A stretch of 64,000 bases of DNA from NCBI GenBank assembly GCA_027604185.1, contig JADGKB010000005.1, positions 124,001 through 188,000 on the forward strand, given 5' to 3'. This document shows positions 42,438 through 55,036 of this stretch, piece by piece. This stretch comes from Boothiomyces macroporosus. Lineage: Eukaryota > Chytridiomycota > Chytridiomycetes > Rhizophydiales > Terramycetaceae. Each line of letters starts with the position of its first letter. The first letter of the stretch is position 1. The translations under genes and the position numbers were made by a program. The notes under the pieces are model-generated. The model ran no database searches and was not told the DNA's origin. It was given only the letters and a program-made list of their open reading frames with translations.

Positions 42438-43226
42438 TTATTGGGCATTTAATGCTTTCCTTTTCTCAGCTTCCTTTGCAAGACGCTTGAGCTTGAAGTA
42501 ATCTTTATGTAAGCCGCACTCTGTCTTCTCTTGCCCTCTCCATCTTCCATCTCTTTCACTCTCGCCCTCTGCTGTAGGCGTTGTAGAGTGCGAATCGCCA
42601 ATGGATTTGTACCCGCGATCATGCAGCACATTATATGGGACATTATTTTCTTTGACGTAGCTCCATACCTGGTTGTAATCCCAAGCAGCCAAAGGGTTAA
42701 TTTTAAATAGTGGAGGAGAGTAAGAGTTATCCAACTCGATGATTGGGAGCTGGCTTCTTTCGGCTCCTTGAGATCTTCTTCTCCCAGTCAGTACAATCTT
42801 TGCCCCTAGTTCCAAGTTTGCTCTTCTGCCTGGCTCCGCTTTGACCAAGTAGTCGTATTTCGCAGAATCAGTCTTCCAAAGCGACTGCCCATACTTTTCG
42901 GTAAATTCTTCGACAGAGTTAGCCCCTTCTGGCTTATATATATGGAGGGTTGGGGAATATTTCGATTTAACATTTTCAATCAGCTCATAGGTTTCTTGGA
43001 AATCTGAATTAAAAACCAAATTACAATGCAAAGTATCAATAAATATAACTGGCAATAGCGAACCAGATTTAGCTAGCATATCCATTAATACCAATCCAGT
43101 CAATCCGAATGAAGTGGTCTGGTAAACCCCATCAAATTTGCTAACCCAGTCGAGGATTTCCTGCGGGGATTTCTCCTGTAGAGTAACATTCAGCTGTGCA
43201 ATATCAGAGATTTCAATCCTTGTCAT
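42438..43226 (-). CDS. MET16: Phosphoadenylyl-sulfate (PAPS) reductase
   Basis: Thioredoxin-dependent reduction of PAPS to sulfite. Single exon of 262 residues, the family length. Visible features are the PP-loop-like TTSFGLTGLVLMDML, the substrate region TGRRRSQGAERSQLP, INPLAAWDYNQVW, and the C-terminal catalytic KTECGLHKD with its redox Cys. There is no second CC pair, which fits a PAPS rather than an APS reductase. It is divergent from MET5 across 238 bp (43227-43464), a shared promoter for two consecutive steps of the pathway. Confidence 0.96.
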   Translation of the reverse strand: MTRIEISDIAQLNVTLQEKSPQEILDWVSKFDGVYQTTSFGLTGLVLMDMLAKSGSLLPVIFIDTLHCNLVFNSDFQETYELIENVKSKYSPTLHIYKPEGANSVEEFTEKYGQSLWKTDSAKYDYLVKAEPGRRANLELGAKIVLTGRRRSQGAERSQLPIIELDNSYSPPLFKINPLAAWDYNQVWSYVKENNVPYNVLHDRGYKSIGDSHSTTPTAEGESERDGRWRGQEKTECGLHKDYFKLKRLAKEAEKRKALNAQ

Positions 43227-43464
43227 TGGAGGATAATTTACTCTCTCACTTTAAATACCATAATCAATCTCCAAATAGCGCAACTATTGCGTGCTCTTGA
43301 GACAACTCAAGGGAAAAAATTCAAGAATGCAAATTTGATTCAATCCTGAATTCAACATGAAAATTATTCGGCGTCTAGGAATATGGAAAAATTTAAAGTC
43401 CAAGTCAGAATTTACTCTTTTTCTTTACACCCTCTGGCTGCAGTTTTAGCTGTGCAGAAAAGAC
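43227..43464. promoter_or_regulatory. Shared divergent promoter of MET16 and MET5
   Basis: 238 bp between the start codons of two consecutive sulfate-assimilation genes. It contains a GACATGTGGCGTGG string next to the MET5 start codon, partly coding, which is only loosely similar to the CACGTG/TGTGGC elements of yeast MET promoters. The regulatory role is inferred from gene order. Confidence 0.45.
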
Positions 43465-46400
43465 ATGTGGCGTGGTTGCCCAAAACCTATAAGAGATGAG
43501 CTACTGATTGAAAACCAGTTTGCAAAAAATGCTCCAAGACAAACAAACGTTGTTGAGCTACCTAAGGTAATACCTTGCTAATTCTGTTATGACCTTTCAT
43601 CTGCAACTTTTGTTGTTGATCATTCACTAGATACTAGTCTAATCAATGCTTGGATTGGACAGAAGCAAAATAATCTATTTGGCCATGTAGGAAAGTTGCA
43701 TAAGGCGCATGCGTTTAATTCCAGCTTGTTGGACCAAGATGATTTCCCGGTTACTGTCTTTACTAGTCAATCTGCCCTTGGAAACTTGCTTTCGTTCGTT
43801 AAAGGAAAAGGAATGGTATTTCATGTTCCATTCACTTCGAGCATCAACCAAAATGTTGCCATGGCCAAGCTAGAAGAATCCACTGTGTTGATTTCCAATT
43901 CAACAGATCAATTTTTCGCAAATGCACACCTTTCGTACCTGCTCTCGACAAAAGGAAATGTGATTCATTACTACTATCTCACTAAAGAAGAGAAAGCGAT
44001 CAATTTTAGAGACTTTGATTTGTCAATTATCGCGAAATACATATCCTCAAATGATAGCACCAGCCCTGAAGACTTTGCCAAAAAATCTGGAATAAATAGT
44101 GAAAAGTTTGTCGCAATAGGCCCAAAGGATGCTACAACTGTAATAGTTGGCTATGGCGGAGCACATCTAGCCGCAGAGGAATCAATTCTCAAAGCAAGCA
44201 GTACTCTATTCGTTCAAATTGTTCAATTTAACCCATTCGATGCTGCTCAATTCATTAAATTGCTTCCTCATTCAGTAAAAGATATGCATCTTGTTGAACC
44301 AACTGGCTTGCTTTATTCAGAAATTGTGCAAAGCTTACATTCTGAAGTTGCTTTAAAAAATGTGGTGATTGAAGAATTAGATACAAAATCACGTCTATAC
44401 TCTCATTTCCAAGGGGTAAACACTGTAGAAGTGCTTGAAAAGGAGCAAAATCTTCATTCTGATATTTTAAGCTCAGTATTTAAAGATCACCTGCAAGTAT
44501 TCAACAGTAAAGGGTCTCCTGAAGTAGCTTTTGGTTCACTAGTTTCAGACTTGCAAAAATACGAAACATTTGTACAGTCTGTTACTGAATTATCCGATTC
44601 CAATCTGTCTGCTGGTTTCAAAAGTAACCTTCAAAGTTGGTTGAAATCCAATGGAAAATCCTCTGACACTCTTTCAAAACAGCTTATTGAAGAAGCCTCA
44701 AATCTTGATCAATCAGAATTTGTCAGACATCATCAAGAGTACTTTAAGAGAAAATCACGCTGGATTGTAGATGTTGAAACATTGTTGGACCTCAGCAATA
44801 CCACAATCCACACTATACTTTCTTCAGGAGAAAACTTGAATTTGCTTATAATCGACCAGTGCTCTTATGATACAGACTTACCAGCTCCAAAGAACAGAAG
44901 AGATGCTGGGCTTTATGCCTTGAATTACAATATTGCCTATGTTGCCGCTATTTGTCCTCTGTACTCTTACACTCAAGCTGTTCAAGCCGTAAAGGAGGCA
45001 GATGCCTTCAACGGACCTTCGGTAATTATACTCCATGCTCCAAAAGGAAATACTGGAAACAAAACTAAAGGGAGTCTTCAGTCAATCAAGTTGGCCAAAA
45101 AAGCTATTGACAATGGTTTAATCACCTTGTATCGTTGGACTCCAAAAACCAATGATACTGAAGAATCCTTGCTGGTAGATTCATCGAAAACCAAAGCTAC
45201 TCTGCAAAAGTATTTGGATAAGGAGGCAAATCTATCCTTGTTGCTTGAAGAGGCAAAAATTAGTAAAGATACTGGTCTTGAAAGCCAAATTGAATCAAAA
45301 GTGCAACAAAAGGCTTTGGATAGCTACAAAAAATTATTTGGAGGAATGAACAAGAAGAAACTGCTTATACTATTTGGTTCTGATGGTGGAAATGCAGAAA
45401 GTCTTGCAAAGCGCATTGGAATGGAAGCAAAAGAAAAAGGATTGTTTGTTAAAACTTTGCCCATGGATGCGTTTGTTACAGAGGATTTGGCAAACGAAGA
45501 ACATGTTTTGTTTGTTATATCTACTGCTGGACAAGGTGAATTTCCCGGAAATGCTAGAGAAACTTGGAAATTCTTGTCGGCAAATGACCTAGATCTTTCA
45601 AAGGTCAACTTTAGTGTCTTTGCATTAGGCGATCGTCAGTACTGGCCTCGTCCTGAGGATTCTCATTACTTTGCCAAAGCTGGAAAGGACCTGGATATCC
45701 GATTGGCAAAGCTAAATGGTAAAAGACTTACTCCAATTGGTGTTGGAGATGACCGTGATCCTGATGGTTACTTTACAGGGTTCAACCAGTGGGTTCCAGA
45801 ATTTTGGACTGCATTAGGGGTAGAGGCGGAATCGCTTGCCACCCAAGCTGCCGTTCCAAGTGATGATGCCATTAAAGCTGCTAGTAATTATCTGAGAGGG
45901 ACCATCGCTGAAGGATTACTTGATACATCTACTGGCGCTTTATCCGAATTTGATACAAAGGTACACTGTTATTAATATAGCTCACCAAATTCCATGGCAT
46001 TTATCAGCAGGATGACAGAGATATCAGAGAGCTAAGAGCAAGGAAAGGGCTAGAAAAAGCATTTTCTTTCATGATTCGTGTAAGAGTTCCTGGTGGCATT
46101 GCTACTCCAGCGCAGTATATCGCCATGGATGATATTAGCGACAAATGGGCGAACGGAACAATCAAGTTAACTACCCGTCAAGCTTTCCAATTCCATGGCA
46201 TTGTGAAGAGCGTTCTCAAGAGATCTATGCAAGATATCAACAAATCGCTATTAGGTACATAAATACTTAAATAGATTCTATTGCAGCATGTGGTGATGTA
46301 AATAGAAATGTAATGTGTAATCCAGACATTGAAAATACTGAAATCCACAAAATTGTATTTGATTTTGCAAAGAGATTTAGTGAACATCTCTTACCTGCTA

Positions 46401-47533
46401 CCGCCGCATATCATGAAATCTGGCTTGACAAAAAGCTGGTTGCTGGGGGTGAAGAAGAACCATTATACGGAAAGACTTACCTTCCAAGAAAGTTCAAAAC
46501 TGCCATCGCCGTTCCTCCTTCAAATGATGTCGATGTTCTTGCCCATGATCTGGGATATATTGCGATCATTGAAGATGGCAAATTCATCGGCTTTAATGTT
46601 ACTGTTGGAGGCGGAATGGGAACCACTCATGGAAACAAGAAAACCTATCCTCTATTGGCCCAACCTCTTGGCTTCTGTACATTAGAGCAGGCTGTTGCTG
46701 TTGGTGAAAAGGTTATGCTAGTTCAAAGAGACTACGGTGATAGAACCAATAGAAAACACGCAAGACTCAAGTACACCATTGAAGATAGAGGCATTGAATG
46801 GTTCAGAAATGAAGTAGAAAGCAGATTAGGATTCAAACTTGAGAAATCAAAGCCGTACAAATTTACTTCGAACGGGGATCGTTATGGGTGGAAGAAGAAT
46901 AGTGATGGAACATGGTCTTACACCCTTTTCATTCAAAATGGACGCATTAAAGATACTCCTGATTACAAACTCAAAACCGGATTGAGAGAAATCGCTGCCG
47001 TACACCAAGGAGTCTTTGCCCTTTCTCCAAATCAGCATTTGGTGATTTCCAAAATCCCTGAAAACCAAAAGGCAACCATTTCAAATTTGCTCGCCAAATA
47101 TGGAATAGACAATAATGGGTTGTCTGGATTGCGTTTGAATTCCATGGCTTGTGTTGCTTTGCCGACTTGTGGTTTAGCCATGGCAGAAAGTGAACGCTAT
47201 CTTCCATCATTAGTTGGAAAGATTGAAAATATTTTGGAGGAGAATGGATTAAGAGAAGAATCAATTACAATAAGAATGACAGGGTGTCCAAACGGTTGTG
47301 CTAGACCTTCAATTGCAGAAATTGCGTTTGTTGGAAAGGCTCCTGGTATGTATAACATGTATCTGGGTGGTGGGTTTGCTGGCGAAAGATTAAACAAACT
47401 ATACAAAGAATCTGTTGGTGAAGAAGATATCCTATCAACCCTCGCGCCTATTATCAAAGACTATTCTCGTTTACGAAGAGATGGGGAGCACTTTGGAGAT
47501 TTTGTGATCAGACAAGGAATTGTTTCTGCTTGA
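43465..47533 (+). CDS. MET5: Sulfite reductase beta subunit (siroheme hemoprotein)
   Basis: Reduces sulfite to sulfide with siroheme and a 4Fe-4S cluster. About 1,310 residues: an N-terminal POR-like region, a flavodoxin domain near residue 598 ([20 protein letters not shown]), and the hemoprotein part from about residue 800. That part has [34 protein letters not shown], and cluster/siroheme ligands in [10 protein letters not shown] and TGCPNGC. Two clean 20-nt introns are at 45961-45980 and 46255-46274. The 5' junction is unresolved. The frame from ATG 43465 meets a TAA at 43579, and the first canonical acceptor in phase gives a 96-nt intron (43567-43662) that removes conserved-looking residues. 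Confidence 0.93.
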
Positions 47534-47569
47534 TATTTTTAATAAAGTATACAAGAAGCGTTTATTCGA

Positions 47570-48899
47570 CTAATAAGGGGGTTGCTGAGGAATATAGGAA
47601 GGATATTGTTGATGAGGAGGAGGATTCACAGGTTGAGGATACTCTGAAGAATACGACATACCTCTTGGAGCCATTTGAGGTTGATATTGAGGATCAACAA
47701 CTGATTGCGCTTGGTACGGAGTGAAATAGGAAGGTTCTAAATTAGTTTAAAAGTACGCATTTGTCTTTGAAAGTTGCTATGCGAGTTTACCAACTTTTGA
47801 TATGTATTGCATGCAGCTGTAAATCGGTCGTGAAGAGCAGCCAATTCATCTTTGTTATAATTTACTCTTACCTTGCTTTTTCCTTTGGTTTCCAGCACAT
47901 TTTATTACCTCTGGTACAAGCTCCAAAATTTTTTGATATTCTTCCTGAAATTAGAAATTCTTCACCTGCAATATTTGATTTTCCGAATAATTATGCCCAA
48001 GCGGGTCAGCCTTGGCAATATTGTGCTTTAAATTTTGAATGGAAGGTAGCTTTCCCAAGAGTAATTCACCCTGATCAACGTCAGTTGTGGAAGCGCTAAT
48101 TTTTTCAACATAATTTGCAGGAAATATACCGACATTGCATTTGTAGCTCCCTTTCCACCAATCATTGAATGTGGAGTTGTCAAATACGTCCACAATACTT
48201 CCTTTGACCAGCTGTAACTCTCCATCTTCTGTCGGATGGTAGTCATACAGAACCTTTACACTAAATAACACTTTTGATGTAGCTTTTTGCTCTTGTTTAA
48301 CAGGCTGCTGCTGCGATAGAGATAGCGCCAACTATATAAAATATTAATTACAGCTAGTTGCAATTCTTCCTCCTCTTTTTGTTTGTCAACATAAGACTTT
48401 TTTTTAGGAGATGGAGGTTGATCAGAAGGGAACGAATATCCTTCATTACGTAACTGATTGTAAACTTCTTGCATATAGTCCAGACTAGGGTTTCCTTTGA
48501 AATCCTTTGCCCAAGTTTGAATAAAGTCCAATATCCGGTTTCTGACTGTGATATGAGTCGAGCTGTTGTTCAACAGCTTTAGCAATGCTTGCAGGTATGG
48601 CCTAGAGCAAATCTCTTGCTTTAATGGTAAACCGCAATTCTGAACCAAGGCGTTTGACAGTGTTAAAGAGAATAAAATAACCTGACTATTAGTAATAGCT
48701 ACATTCACATTCCTGTGACCTAATTTCCGAATGATAATATTTACAGCGTCTCTTGCTTTGGAAGGATTGCTGGTTAATACAAAATTACCTTTCCACTATT
48801 TCGCAGATTTTGATGATTACACCCCAGTCTTCTCCAGTATTGGTTTCGCTAGTAGCGGCATCTAACTGTTACTCCAAGGCTACCAATGAGAGATTCCAT
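47570..48899 (-). CDS. HSE1: ESCRT-0 subunit Hse1/STAM (VHS-UIM-SH3-GAT)
   Basis: Sorts ubiquitinated cargo on endosomes with Vps27. About 394 residues from eight exons (introns 22, 19, 21, 20, 21, 22 and 20 nt). In order: a VHS domain (ATSETNTGEDWGVIIKICEIVE, LTLSNALVQNCG, WAKDFKGNPSLDYMQEVYNQLRNEGYSFP), a ubiquitin-interacting motif (EEEELQLALALSLS), and an SH3 domain (LYDYHPTEDGELQLVKG...WWKGSYKCNVGIFPANYVEKI). A coiled-coil GAT region (LQEEYQKILELV) and a Pro/Gln/Tyr-rich tail follow. The 21-nt intron at 48682-48702 has no stop and would be missed by simple ORF calling. A further in-frame 18-nt intron just before the SH3 is possible. Confidence 0.94.
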
Positions 48900-48914
48900 T
48901 TCTTTCAGATCTAA

Positions 48915-49588
48915 ATGGCAACAAATTTGGAGGTAGTAGCCACCTTATGCACAATGGGATTATTCCTCACCAATGCGTATGATGTTTATCAATTCTACAA
49001 GCTGCAATCTACCGGGAACTCCAGCGCACTTCCGCTGATATCTACCTTGGTTAATTGCGCTCTATGGTACAAATACGGTAACTGCTTCTTGATGTAGGTT
49101 CCTTACTAGACCAATCGACAATGACCACTGTTAATGGAGTAGGATTACTAGTCACACTGATTTGCATCTATACCTTTTTCATATACTCGCCAAATCAGCA
49201 TGTGATTGAACGACAGATTACATTTACACTATTATTTCTCATAGCAGTGTTGGGCTACGTACAGCTCAACCCTCCCACCATAGTAATGCAGTTGGGATAC
49301 ATGGTATCCGGGGTGAATATATTAATGTACGCTGCACCAGCAGTCAACTTGGTCCAAGTTTATAAATTTCAAACTACTCACGGGCTGATATCTCTTCCTC
49401 TGACTTTGATGACTATCCTCGTGTGTTTGCTTTGGACAATGCTTGGGTATCAGTTGAGCGACAACTTTGTAATAGTCCCAAATTTCATTGGACTGTTGTT
49501 TGGAGTCATTCAGCTTGGGTTTTACTTCAACTATTCAAATTCTGAACGGCTGCCTACAAGCCGAAGAAGCTCAAGAAAATCTTACTAA
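48915..49588 (+). CDS. SWEET-family sugar transporter
   Basis: About 217 residues from two exons (20-nt intron gtaactgcttcttgatgtag) with seven hydrophobic helices arranged as two MtN3/saliva triple-helix bundles. The first bundle has LPLISTLVNCALWYKYG. The second has YAAPAVNLVQVYKFQTTHGLISLPLTLMTILVCLLWTMLGY followed by VPNFIGLLFGVIQLGFYF, the conserved PN-x-x-G pattern. SWEETs are energy-independent sugar uniporters, common in plants and animals but rare in fungi. The gene lies between HSE1 and the Met8-Met10 fusion; the HSE1 and SWEET start codons are only 15 bp apart. Confidence 0.93.
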
Positions 49589-49736
49589 AATAAAGCAGCT
49601 CTGAACTTAATGTGTTGAATCAATGCGGAAAAAAGGTTTTGCCGAACTTAGCACGCAATTGAGAAAAATTTAGAGATTGTATGGTGCAATTGGAGATGAT
49701 AAAAAGTCAGGAAATTCCCATTTCATAAATTTTCTA

Positions 49737-52700
49737 ATGTTCCTTCACTTAGACACGTTCGAAAAGTAATAGTTTTCTAACGTAGAAATGTCCTCGTTCT
49801 TGGAGGGTCGATTCAAGCTTTCAATGCTGTCATGTCACTAAAGCAAAACTCTGATGTTACTCTTGTCGCCCACAAGACTGACTTGTGCTCTGAATTTCAA
49901 TCGCAGATCGGCTTGGGTGAATTTGGCTGGTACAACAGAGTCTATCGCCCTTTAGATTTGAAGGGAAAGGATATGGTTATTAATTTCGATCCTAGCATCA
50001 AAGGGTTATCCAAAGAGTGCAAAGAAAGAGGAATTACTTATCAAAATCTTAGTAAGAATGTTTCGCTAGAATTTGGTTCAACGTAAGTCTCGTTTAATGG
50101 TAGATTTAAGTTTGGAAAATTGGAGATTGGCACTAGCACTTCAGGAGCTGCACCACTACTTGAGCAGTCAATCAACGACTATATTTCTTCAATTATCCCA
50201 GGCTTTTTGCCGGTTGCTGTTGAAAAGATGGAAAAATTGACAGCCAGGCTATACGAAGAAACCTTGTCTTCCCCAACGCAAGTAGACTTTTTGAACTACA
50301 TTGCTCAGCATTGGTATCTCAATGCTATTGCGAGACTGACCGACTCTAGTATTTCAAAGTTGATTGAATTTTACAATAACGGAAATTTGACACCATCTTC
50401 TGACAGTGTCGGTTTGGTTTGGGAAAAGGAAGAAGATAAGCCGGCTGTAGTATCCAAGTCAGTTTCAGAAACATCTTCTCAGTCAACTGCCGCAGATTCA
50501 TTGGAGAAGGAACAACTATTGCGATCTGAATCGTTCTCAAACAGAAGTTCCAGGCCATTGGTGAACGAAATCAAAGAATCCCCAAAGAAAATCCCAAGTG
50601 TAAAAACCTCTGTCGAAATTATTGATGGTGCCAAAGCAGTTTCAACCGTTGCCTATCAATTTTCTGAAGTTTCTTATATTTATCCGGTTTACTCTGAAAA
50701 CTATCCTGGTGAAAATATGATTGAATGGTCAAAATCTAGAAAGCAAAATGTTTACAATTCCTCCACCAAGGTTATCAACACAACAGCTCATGTTGGTGCC
50801 GGACAAAGTATTGCGGGATCCTTGTCTAGTGGCTCTAAAACTAGTGCCGTTTTATCTTCTGCAGCTTTGGGATATTTGCTACCTGCAATGTACAATATTG
50901 TTCGTGACAAGCAATATCCAGTATTTCACGTTGCGTCCAATTTGATTAGTGACGAATTGGTTTTGGAACATAGCAACGCAGACATATACAAGGCTGTCCA
51001 CACTGGATTTTCCATTTTGTCCTCCTCAAACGCACAGGAAGCTTATGACATGGCAATAGTTGCCCATCTTGCTGCCGAAGCGTCACATAAACCAGTACTT
51101 CACTTCTTTGACGGTGTACGGGTCGCGTCCCAGGAAACCTCTTCGGTAGTTGCTAACTTGAGAGACGTCAAGCAGTACTCTCCTGACAAGACCTATGGCA
51201 CAACCTTTGAAGCTATCTCTGAAACGCTAGCAAATGTTTCAAAGTTATTGAACAGATCCTACAAGCCATTTGAATATCACGGCTCTGCAAATGCTAAGGT
51301 AGTGTTGATTTCAATGGGATCTACCGGTAGTGCGATCAAGCCTGCGGTTGACAGGCTAGCTTCCGTAGGCCACAATGTTGGATACGTTAATATCCGCGTT
51401 TTCCGTCCATGGTCCCCTGCTGCTTTCTTGTCAGTAATTCCAACTGCTACTGAGAAAATCATCGTAGTTGATCAAGCAAATACCTCCCCAGTTGCAATTG
51501 ACGTGGAAACAGCTTATTATGGACAAACCAATAGAAATGCACCATCTGTTGAAACAGTGTCATTCCAAAAGGGCTTGGAAAATATTCATCCTATTTTTGT
51601 TGAACAATATTTGGCAAACTATCTTGATGGGTCCTTGTCCCGTGAAATTATATTTGATGAACAAGCACTTTCCACCGAATTTCACTACAAAAATAGCACA
51701 TCGGCTTTATTTTGGGACAAAAAGTCTACCAAAACTAGCAAAACTATTGAGATTATTACTGGCGATTTTGATAAAAAGCATGTTCAAAAGTATTCGCAAC
51801 AAATGGCCACCTCTGTTGTTCCTGCTGAGCTCAATCACCTGCAATTCAGCGAAAATGCTTTTGAAGAGGGCAATATTGTTCTTCAAGCTGACTTGATTAT
51901 GGTAAACGACTTGGGCATTGCCACCGGGTACAACTTTGCACTACCTTTGGTTGCAAACGGCAAGATTTTCTTTAACACATCATTGTCCAAGGAAGATTTA
52001 TTGGAAAGTATTCCTGCTGACGTAAAGAAAGATTTAGCCAAAAAATCAGTTTCAATCTATACTTTAGACGCAAATCTGGTAGCTACAAACTATACTATTT
52101 TCTACGGCAACCCAACTCATTATCTGCAAGAAGTTTTGGCAGCTGTTTTCTACAGATTATCTCTGGGAGAAGGCGAATTCAATGCGACTTTGAACAAGCA
52201 AATCGCTAGAATTAACCAAACTGCTGAAAAAATCAATGTTCGTGAAACTCTAAAAGAATCCATTTACTACGCTTTGAAGCATTTACAGAACGTTGGAGTC
52301 GTCCCTTCTGAAAGTGCAGTAGTGGAAAATGCCACTCAAAAGTTTGTTCAAGGCACTGTCCCGTCGAAAAGTATCTTCAATGAAGAAGATCTTGAACACT
52401 CCACTGAAGTATCCTCAAGGATTGTACCTAACCACCGTGCATTACTCCCAGTAATTTTCCCAACCGCCTTCAAAACTACTCAAAAGCTACGTCCTGACAT
52501 TGAAGGTGCATTTACTGTCACTGTTACCGAAAACTACAGACTCACCCCAGATTCTTACGACAGAAATGTTTTCCATATGGAATTGGATATTACAGGGACT
52601 GGGTTAAAGTATGACATTGGTGATGCTCTGGGTGTGTACGCACAAAACGATGTTGAAGAAGTCCACAAATTCTTGAAATCTTATGGGCTTAATCCTCAAC

Positions 52701-53656
52701 AAGTGGTATATATCGATAGACCAGATGGAGAAGGAAATACTGTGACTGAATTAAGATCTATTGAGCAAATATTTATCCACACTCTGGATATCTTTGGTAA
52801 ACCAGGCAAGAAATTCTATCAACATTTGGCCGTTAAAGCTACCGAGGATTCAGAAAAGGAAGAAATTGCTGCAATCTTGGAAACAACTGAAGGGTTTGAA
52901 AAGTATGTCGAAGACTATACTCCAACTTTTGCAGACTTGCTTGCCATGTTCCCTTCAGCAAAACTGTCAATCGAAGAACTTTTGGTCCAAATTCCTTCAA
53001 TGAAACCAAGACATTATTCTATTGCTTCATCTCAAAAGAAGCATCCAAATAGCGTCCACTTGCTGATTGTAGTGGTGGACTGGGAATCTAAAGATGGCGT
53101 CAAGAGATTCGGTCAAGCAACCAGATTCCTGGTCAATGCTGCAATTGGAAGCACAATCTCAGTTTCAGTAAAACCATCTGTAATGAAATTGCCACCTTCA
53201 CTTGAAGCTCCAGTCATTATGGCCGGTCTAGGAACTGGTATGGCTCCATTCCGTGCGTTTATTGAAGAACGTATGTATTGGAAAGAAAAAGGCAAAAAGG
53301 TTGGCCCAATGGTTCTTTACTTTGGTTCAAGAAATCGTGCAAACGAATATTTGTATGGTGAAGAGCTGGAAGCGTATCATGATGATGGAATTTTGACCCA
53401 TCTCAGACTTGCATTCTCTAGAGATCAGAAGCAAAAAGTCTACATTCAACACAAAATCCAAGAAGACAAGGATTTATTGCATGATTTAATCATCAAGCAG
53501 AATGGTTCGTTCTATCTATGTGGTCCTACTTGGCCGGTTCCTGATGTCACCAATGCCCTGTTGGAATCATTTGTTACTTCAATGTCTCAGGAAGATGCTG
53601 ATCACATGCTAGAAGATTTAAAGCACTTGGAAAGATTTGTTTTGGAGGTTTACTAA
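49737..53656 (+). CDS. MET10: Fused siroheme synthase (Met8) - sulfite reductase alpha (Met10)
   Basis: About 1,292 residues from three exons (introns 49766-49785, 20 nt, and 50083-50103, 21 nt). Residues 1 to about 195 resemble Met8 (precorrin-2 dehydrogenase/ferrochelatase): a Rossmann start NVLVLGGSIQAFNAVMSLKQ,  LEFGSTFKFGKLEIGTSTSGAAPLL, and a helical C-terminal lobe. A Ser/Glu-rich linker (about 200-270) leads to the complete Met10 architecture. This is a POR-like region (SEVSYIYPVYSENYPGENMIEW, LPAMYNIV, HFFDGVR) followed by the FAD/NADPH reductase from about residue 905 (DIGDALGVYA, RHYSIASSQ, GLGTGMAPFRAFIEE, FYLCGPTWPVPDV, ending LEVY). The Met8 lobe and the Met10 part share one uninterrupted exon, so the fusion is not a splicing guess. 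Confidence 0.92.
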
Positions 53657-53705: not shown

Positions 53706-55036
53706 ATGAGAAAGCTTATTTTGCTTACAGATTTGCTCCCCCATGTATTTGAATACTTGGATAGTTGCCCAAATACCTTGCTTCTCTGTGCGCAGGTTTG
53801 TAAGGTCTGGTCATATCCGGCAATCACTTTCATTTATACCTACCCCCAATTCAAATCGCTTTGGGCATTGCGGAAATTCTTGGACATTGTCTGCAATAAG
53901 CAGCCTGTGTGGAAGAAATGTATTAAGAGACTCGATTTATCAGAGATACGATCAACAATTTCAAAGGAAGATCTCACGCGGATAGTTAAAATGAATTGTC
54001 CAAACATGCTTGAAATCGATTTCAGAAACTGCAAAAACTTGACGGATTATCACCTTGAAATATTGAATATGCGACGGAAATCATTAGCATTTGCGAGTTG
54101 TAGAAATATAAGCGATTCTGGAATATTCCATTTGGTCCGAAATTGTGGTAAGTTATCGCTAACAAGGTTCATTCATCGAAAAACTATGCATCGAAAACTG
54201 CTGTCAACTAACCGATCAATCGTTAATTAGAATATCACAATACTGCGTAAACCTTCGATATCTGAAATTATCGCAATTAGGAAATAATGTTACTGACGAT
54301 GGATTATTAGCTATAGCTGGGATACATTTCGAAAAGACAGATAATCGCTTGAAGAGTAATGCATTACCACTTGAAGTGCTTCAGCTGTATGATTGCCCAA
54401 TGATATCCGACTATTCTCTGATAGAAATTGCCCAAAATTGTAACCATTTATTCTTCATTGACTTTTACCATCTGCCAATGGTAACCGATCAAGCGCTAAT
54501 TGCATTTGCAAGATATTCAAATTTGACCACCATCAGTCTATCCGAACTTAAAAGGATTACAGATCAATCTATTTGTGAAATTGGCCGCTGTTGCGATATA
54601 ACTTCACTTACAATTTGTCACAATGAACAAATCACTGACAGGGGAATGATTGAATTAGTCAGACTGTCACCAAACTTGCGGTAATATTTTTTAATGCAGA
54701 CTTATAGATATCAGTCTAGTAGGCGATATCACTCTGGTGTCTCTAATCGCTACGGTACAGTGTTGCAAACTGCTGAAACATGTCGTAGTATCCGGAAATT
54801 TAAGCCATGAATGTATACCCACAAGAGCTATTCTTGATGTAGTGAAGCATGTGTCATCACTGCAAACTTTGAGTGTGTTCCAATCACAGGATATGACTTT
54901 GGAAGACATAACTGACTTGGAGTCTGTTTGTCCCAAACTTCAGCACTTGTTTGTTCGTAACTGCGTTGAAATTACAATGTGCATGGCCCAAATATTTTCA
55001 AAGACTCACCGATTGCAACTAATAACTGAAGGATAA
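53706..55036 (+). CDS. F-box/leucine-rich-repeat protein (AMN1/FBXL-like)
   Basis: About 430 residues from three exons (two 19-nt introns). An N-terminal F-box (LLTDLLPHVFEYLDSCPNTLLLCAQVCKVWSYPA) is followed by about ten Cys-containing LRRs of the FBXL/AMN1 type (CPNMLEIDFRNCKNLTDYHLEIL, LCIENCCQLTDQSLIRISQYC, LQLYDCPMISDYSLIEIAQNC). It probably acts as the substrate receptor of an SCF ubiquitin ligase. Yeast Grr1 is the best-known relative, but it cannot be assigned as an ortholog from the repeats alone. Convergent with RPAP1, 18 bp apart. Confidence 0.87.

What the first reader, a model, noticed from the sequence alone, without database searches (positions are those of the whole stretch)
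49737..53656. Siroheme synthase (Met8) domain fused to sulfite reductase alpha (Met10)
The gene starts with a Met8-like Rossmann domain and helical lobe, then a Ser-rich linker, then full-length Met10. The helical Met8 lobe, linker and Met10 sit in one uninterrupted exon (50104-53656), so the fusion is seen directly. Met8 finishes siroheme, the cofactor of the Met5 hemoprotein that Met10 feeds with electrons. Joining them could channel siroheme to the partner subunit, couple cofactor supply to enzyme dose, or both. I know of no described Met8-Met10 fusion; bacterial CysG instead fuses Met8 to the uroporphyrinogen methyltransferase.
Basis: partly seen in the sequence, partly recalled or inferred. 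Interest (0 to 1): 0.88.

Follow-up and report, generated by a model that had tools for sequence, protein, structure and literature searches.

The report
Degenerate Met8 domain fused to Met10
In some chytrid fungi, one subunit of the enzyme that makes sulfide carries on its front end an altered copy of the enzyme that makes its siroheme cofactor; the join is real and conserved, but the attached copy has probably lost its chemistry and may instead serve as a docking or regulatory piece.

Summary
The fusion is real. The window is from Boothiomyces macroporosus (Chytridiomycota, Rhizophydiales). Removing a 20-nt and a 21-nt intron gives the public 1292-aa protein letter for letter. Residues 1-208 are a full-length Met8/CysG-type domain (hhalign probability 98.1%, 204 columns), then a Ser-rich linker and Met10. 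Boothiomyces sp. JEL0866, Terramyces and Kappamyces share it; one unnamed protein has part. Six other Met10 proteins scanned show no siroheme-family match.

The active-enzyme reading is weakened. The loop carrying the Asp that CysG needs for both reactions is shorter and has no Asp in the three Terramycetaceae; the second Rossmann Gly is Ser or Thr in 3 of 3 sequences covering it. The genome also encodes an intact Met8 fused to a methyltransferase. Yet between Boothiomyces strains the domain is 88% identical, above the POR_N, PFOR_II and middle parts of Met10, below the FAD/NAD half, which argues against decay.

Best reading: a conserved pseudo-Met8 used for docking or dimerisation, possibly with the intact siroheme synthase. 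That role is inferred. My paper searches listed no such fusion.

The parts
49737..49765 (+). exon 1 (codons 1-9 and two bases of codon 10)
   Evidence: spliced translation equals public protein P0001
49766..49785 (+). intron 1, 20 nt
   Evidence: needed for exact match to P0001
49786..50082 (+). exon 2, most of the Met8-like Rossmann half
50083..50103 (+). intron 2, 21 nt
   Evidence: needed for exact match to P0001
50104..53656 (+). exon 3: end of the Met8-like domain, linker and all of Met10 in one open frame
50114..50401 (+). Met8-like dimerisation segment and C-terminal helical lobe (residues 113-208)
   Evidence: hhalign to Met8 family; STSGAAP motif at residues 120-126
50402..50617 (+). 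Ser-rich linker (residues 209-280)
   Evidence: less conserved than the domain before it: 79% against 88%, P0001-P0002
50648..51142 (+). Met10 POR_N domain (residues 291-455)
   Evidence: Pfam PF01855 8e-20
51293..51541 (+). Met10 PFOR_II domain (residues 506-588)
   Evidence: Pfam PF17147 2.2e-11
52502..53128 (+). Met10 FAD-binding domain (residues 909-1117)
   Evidence: Pfam PF00667 4.6e-60
53225..53527 (+). Met10 NAD(P)-binding domain (residues 1150-1250)
   Evidence: Pfam PF00175 1.9e-10
43696..47533 (+). MET5, sulfite reductase beta (approximate; the open frames 43696-45975 and 46313-47533 are in different frames, so an intron lies between)
   Evidence: Pfam Flavodoxin_1 and NIR_SIR; frames
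42438..43226 (-). MET16, PAPS reductase
   Evidence: Pfam PF01507 2.7e-43

Best explanation
In Rhizophydiales chytrids the sulfite reductase alpha subunit Met10 gained, at its N-terminus, a full-length Met8-family (precorrin-2 dehydrogenase/ferrochelatase) domain that no longer has the usual siroheme-synthase active site but is conserved between close species. Shown: the fusion, the family relationship, the changed catalytic and dinucleotide motifs, an intact Met8-methyltransferase gene elsewhere in the genome, and conservation between close relatives. Inferred: the domain is a pseudoenzyme that works through the Met8 dimerisation surface, either pairing two Met10 chains or pairing with the intact siroheme synthase so that the cofactor is made next to the Met5/Met10 reductase.
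For: Spliced product equals a public protein; same order of domains in P0001, P0002, P0003 and P0005, helical lobe in P0004. Profile match over 204 columns including dimerisation segment and C-lobe. The loop that carries CysG D104 is 2-3 residues shorter and holds no Asp in P0001-P0003 in three MAFFT modes; GGG becomes GGS, GGS, GGT in P0001, P0002, P0005. CysG D104A has no dehydrogenase or chelatase activity (PMC7018833, passages). Intact Met8 (with Asp, GGG and Pro) fused to TP_methylase on C131. Domain identity P0001-P0002 88%, against 74% POR_N, 67% PFOR_II region, 72% middle and 94% FAD/NAD half.
Against: No binding, structure or expression data; the docking partner is a guess. In Kappamyces the loop is ambiguous: MAFFT leaves a 10- or 11-residue gap, but the Asp of S-I-D-S-F-S could be placed at the catalytic position by hand; there the platform Pro is His. 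SirC works as a dehydrogenase with Ser at that position and CysG D104N keeps some activity (PMC7018833), so lack of Asp does not prove lack of all activity. Conservation to Kappamyces is lower in this domain (36%) than in POR_N (45%). No DNA of relatives was at hand, so no dN/dS.
Confidence: 0.5

Rival explanations
1. The domain is a tetrapyrrole- or nucleotide-binding sensor or chaperone: it holds sirohydrochlorin or siroheme (or senses NAD(H)) and gates or loads the reductase without doing chemistry.
For: The S-T-x-G-A-A-P segment with the platform Pro is kept in 3 of 3 Terramycetaceae; [quoted passage not shown]
Against: The capping loop is shortened; the Pro is His in Kappamyces; the second Rossmann Gly is replaced, which argues against NAD (the effect on NAD is recalled).
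Confidence: 0.2
2. A working precorrin-2 dehydrogenase without chelatase activity, like bacterial SirC.
For: The best N-terminal NCBIfam match is NF005222, an NAD(P)-binding protein model; the better of two PDB matches at E <= 1 is 3dfz, precorrin-2 dehydrogenase, at E 0.05, not significant; SirC also lacks the Asp (PMC7018833).
Against: GGS/GGT in place of GGG at the dinucleotide loop; an intact Met8 gene already exists.
Confidence: 0.12
3. One reading: a working bifunctional Met8 that makes siroheme and channels it to Met5.
For: Domain complete in length; fused to the partner subunit; MET5 and MET16 nearby.
Against: Catalytic loop and dinucleotide motif changed; intact Met8 elsewhere.
Confidence: 0.05
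4. A neutral leftover of an old fusion.
For: Active-site residues are changed; the domain diverges strongly to Kappamyces (36%).
Against: 88% identity between Boothiomyces strains, above POR_N and the middle of Met10; domain length kept in two families.
Confidence: 0.1
5. Gene-model or assembly artefact joining two genes.
For: The first two exons depend on 20- and 21-nt introns that I could not check in RNA.
Against: Half of the domain, the linker and Met10 are one open exon; same architecture in four named strains.
Confidence: 0.02

Closest known systems
Met8p (S. cerevisiae, PDB 1kyq)
   Same: same family; a 144-residue stretch of it is one of four rows in the profile comparison
   Different: separate from the methyltransferase in yeast (PMC7018833, PMC6240589, passages); has the catalytic Asp and a GGG motif that the fused domain lacks
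CysG (PDB 1pjq)
   Same: Met8-type domain at the N-terminus of a multidomain protein
   Different: CysG is joined to the uroporphyrinogen methyltransferase and is catalytic; here the partner is Met10. The CysG-like protein of this genome is a different gene, on C131
SirC (PDB 3dfz)
   Same: no Asp in the loop; best of two PDB sequence matches, E 0.05
   Different: SirC has GGG, and its loop aligns to that of CysG with one residue missing before it; it is a stand-alone dehydrogenase (PMC7018833, passages)
Ordinary fungal Met10
   Same: POR_N, PFOR_II, FAD and NAD domains, as in Mucor P0006
   Different: no siroheme-family match in 6 of 6 other Met10 proteins scanned: P0006, P0008, P0009, P0010 and P0023 from named non-chytrid fungi and P0007, whose organism is not given

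Membership tests
Met8/CysG-B siroheme synthase (bifunctional) | sequence homology over Rossmann, dimerisation and C-lobe segments | tested here: met
   hhalign 204 columns, probability 98.1%; NCBIfam matches significant but below curated cut-offs; Pfam below cut-off or absent
Met8/CysG-B siroheme synthase (bifunctional) | catalytic Asp (CysG D104) in the capping loop | tested here: not met
   absent in P0001, P0002, P0003 in three MAFFT modes; P0005 ambiguous; P0004 does not cover it
Met8/CysG-B siroheme synthase (bifunctional) | GxGxxA dinucleotide motif | tested here: not met
   second Gly is Ser, Ser, Thr in P0001, P0002, P0005; the P0003 and P0004 models do not cover it
Met8/CysG-B siroheme synthase (bifunctional) | tetrapyrrole platform Pro (CysG P133) | tested here: inconclusive
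   kept in P0001-P0003, His in P0005
Met8/CysG-B siroheme synthase (bifunctional) | dehydrogenase and ferrochelatase activity | not testable with these tools
   no assay
Precorrin-2 dehydrogenase SirC | intact dinucleotide motif | tested here: not met
   motif changed in 3 of 3 sequences covering it
Precorrin-2 dehydrogenase SirC | NAD-dependent precorrin-2 dehydrogenase activity | not testable with these tools
   no assay
Sulfite reductase alpha Met10 | POR_N, PFOR_II, FAD_binding_1 and NAD_binding_1 domains in order | tested here: met
   all four above Pfam cut-offs in P0001

The most novel reading that the evidence does not exclude
A pseudo-siroheme-synthase domain on Met10 pairs with the active Met8-methyltransferase protein of the same cell, so that siroheme is made on the reductase that uses it: a built-in cofactor-delivery dock made from a dead paralogue of the cofactor's own enzyme.
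Probability: 0.25. Interest if true: 0.75.

Novelty: new variant of a known kind. Interest (0 to 1): 0.5.

Why it matters
How siroheme reaches sulfite reductase is, as far as I know (recalled), an open question. A fusion of a catalytically altered Met8 paralogue to the reductase, shared by two chytrid families, offers a concrete protein pair with which to test cofactor delivery by docking. It also looks like a new domain architecture for a textbook sulfur-assimilation enzyme.

Tried and rejected
AlphaFold2 on five fusion N-termini gave mean pLDDT 48.1, so I ran no fold search. One genome-contig scan with the intact Met8 matched 26 stretches by pattern but none encoded a relative; the second scan was not used. 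The region search with residues 1-260 found only the three Terramycetaceae among 5158 candidates and missed Kappamyces, so the true spread is not known. The whole-protein and profile searches scored only the 8000 and 7999 candidates sharing most words. One search had 273 hits, of which I saw the 120 listed; most of those carry pyruvate:ferredoxin oxidoreductase domains, so other chytrid Met10 proteins may have been cut off or lie among the 153 not listed. I less favour an origin from the Met1-like protein on C115: BLASTP E 0.13 against 1e-8 for the intact Met8, though for the Kappamyces domain the two are close (0.004 against 0.001). I first assumed the catalytic Asp is lost in all members; the Kappamyces loop is ambiguous, so I do not claim that. 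DNA search found one copy of the gene in the assembly, so no second allele to compare.

Papers, listings only: searches (siroheme, MET8, MET10, fusion: one paper, by its title and abstract unrelated; Boothiomyces genome), (no paper); for introns. Passages read: PMC7018833 (12 of 27 places), PMC2275785 (12 of 26; the fusions named there are of ATP sulfurylase), PMC6240589 (12 of 31), PMC5364385 and PMC13391722 (intron places). PMC125995 and PMC2857972 are not held. Recalled, not from a call: that a change of the second Rossmann Gly harms NAD binding; that delivery of siroheme to the reductase is unsettled.

Full report
What is there. The window is contig C5, 124001-188000, of a 15.2-Mb assembly in 216 contigs. 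The gene's protein is identical to HK103_005406 of Boothiomyces macroporosus, family Terramycetaceae, order Rhizophydiales. Exons 49737-49765, 49786-50082 and 50104-53656 spliced together give the 1292-aa protein exactly. Half of the Met8-like domain, the linker and all of Met10 lie in the single exon 50104-53656, so the fusion does not depend on the two small introns. MET16 (42438-43226, minus) and MET5 (about 43.7-47.5 kb, plus) lie upstream, with VHS and SH3 frames on the minus strand and an MtN3-type sugar transporter frame between MET5 and MET10: a loose sulfate-assimilation cluster.

Is the N-terminus Met8? Pfam sees it only below its cut-offs when scanned alone, and in the exact full-length P0001 and P0002 lists no Met8-type family at E <= 1. 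NCBIfam sees it better: NF005222 (an NAD(P)-binding protein model), TIGR01470 and CysG at 1.5e-9 to 1.5e-5 in P0001; NF005222 and CysG also in P0002, P0003 and P0005, the weakest being CysG in P0003 at 0.019; none in P0004. All are below the curated cut-offs. Scanned alone, the N-terminus matched only three families at E up to 1, NF005222 and the two siroheme-synthase models (query with one extra residue). Profile comparison with the intact Met8 of this genome and stretches of SirC, CysG and Met8p aligns 204 columns, from the first strand to the end of the C-lobe. BLASTP to this genome's own intact Met8 covers residues 10-207. I take homology over the full domain as established.

Spread. Five proteins carry all or part of it: P0001, P0002 (Boothiomyces sp. 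JEL0866), P0003 (Terramyces JEL0728; model starts 18 residues late), P0005 (Kappamyces JEL0829, family Kappamycetaceae) and P0004 (unnamed, helical lobe only). Six other Met10 proteins show no siroheme-family match: P0006; P0007-P0010 and P0023, where 25 of P0023's 28 matches are shown. Five of the six are from named non-chytrid fungi; P0007 is unnamed. The searches were capped, so wider spread is not excluded, and I have no Met10 from chytrids outside Rhizophydiales.

Is it active? In CysG, D104 sits on a loop (D-A-P-K) that flips over the tetrapyrrole; D104A has no dehydrogenase or chelatase activity, D104N keeps a little, and P133 forms the platform (PMC7018833, passages). In P0001-P0003 this loop is two or three residues shorter and has no Asp in any of three MAFFT modes: the column is a gap in two modes and Asn in one, and hhalign puts Ser there. 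In Kappamyces MAFFT leaves a gap of 10 or 11 residues; an Asp nearby could be aligned by hand; the Pro is His. The motif GGG is GGS, GGS and GGT in the three sequences that cover it. Contig C131 carries a 745-aa protein with all three Met8 Pfam domains and a TP_methylase domain above cut-offs, with Asp, GGG and Pro in place. A Met1-like protein with a Met8-type N-terminus (27.1 bits to NAD_binding_7) and a methyltransferase lies on C115, and again in part on C142. So siroheme synthesis should not need the fused domain.

Is it decaying? Identity P0001-P0002 by region: Met8-like 184/208 (88%), linker 57/72 (79%), POR_N 141/190 (74%), PFOR_II region 87/130 (67%), middle 219/304 (72%), FAD/NAD half 363/388 (94%). 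P0002-P0003 is similar: 87%, 71%, 76%, 65%, 65%, 91%. To Kappamyces the domain has 72/199 (36%) against 86/190 (45%) for POR_N. Close relatives thus hold the domain tightly, while the deeper split changed it a good deal.

Mechanism. A Met8-family domain that has changed its active site but keeps length, dimerisation segment and conservation is best read as a pairing or docking module. CysG is a homodimer (PMC7018833, passages) and Met8p too (recalled), so the domain could dimerise Met10 or pair with the C131 enzyme. Neither is shown.

Novelty. The searches listed no paper whose title or abstract describes a Met8-Met10 fusion; the library lacks most subscription papers. It is a new architecture of known families.

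Noticed in passing
window, both strands; examples 49766-49785, 50083-50103, 54148-54166: Ultra-short introns, about 20 nt: with five donor words and a TRAY branch word, GT..AG sites of exactly 20 nt occur 17 times against 2.95 expected (highest of 60 first-order random sequences 11), 19-22 nt 41 times against about 12.3, no clear excess at 23-40 nt (highest 6, at 37 nt). That pattern was set after a first one gave 29 sites, 12 of them 20 nt long, against about 19 expected in all. Two of the short introns splice exactly to a public protein and a third, 21 nt, splits the conserved Met8 motif of the C131 gene. No RNA checked. Not seen in the listings (25 of 103 papers listed).
   Followed up: partly
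L005 (C131:10500-17500), minus strand: A 745-aa Met8-methyltransferase fusion in the same order as bacterial CysG, in a fungus; yeast has these as two proteins.
   Followed up: partly
L002 and L003 (contigs C115 and C142): Near-identical stretches on two contigs carrying a Met1-like gene with a Met8-type N-terminus: perhaps an unmerged duplicate or allele in the assembly (by eye).
   Followed up: no
contig C60:65948-66436 of the same assembly: A third TP_methylase match (7.3e-19), not identified.
   Followed up: no
window 42438-53656: MET16, MET5 and MET10 lie within 11.2 kb, a loose sulfate-assimilation cluster.
   Followed up: partly
P0003 and P0004: Public gene models of relatives start late, perhaps because very short introns were missed.
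   Followed up: no
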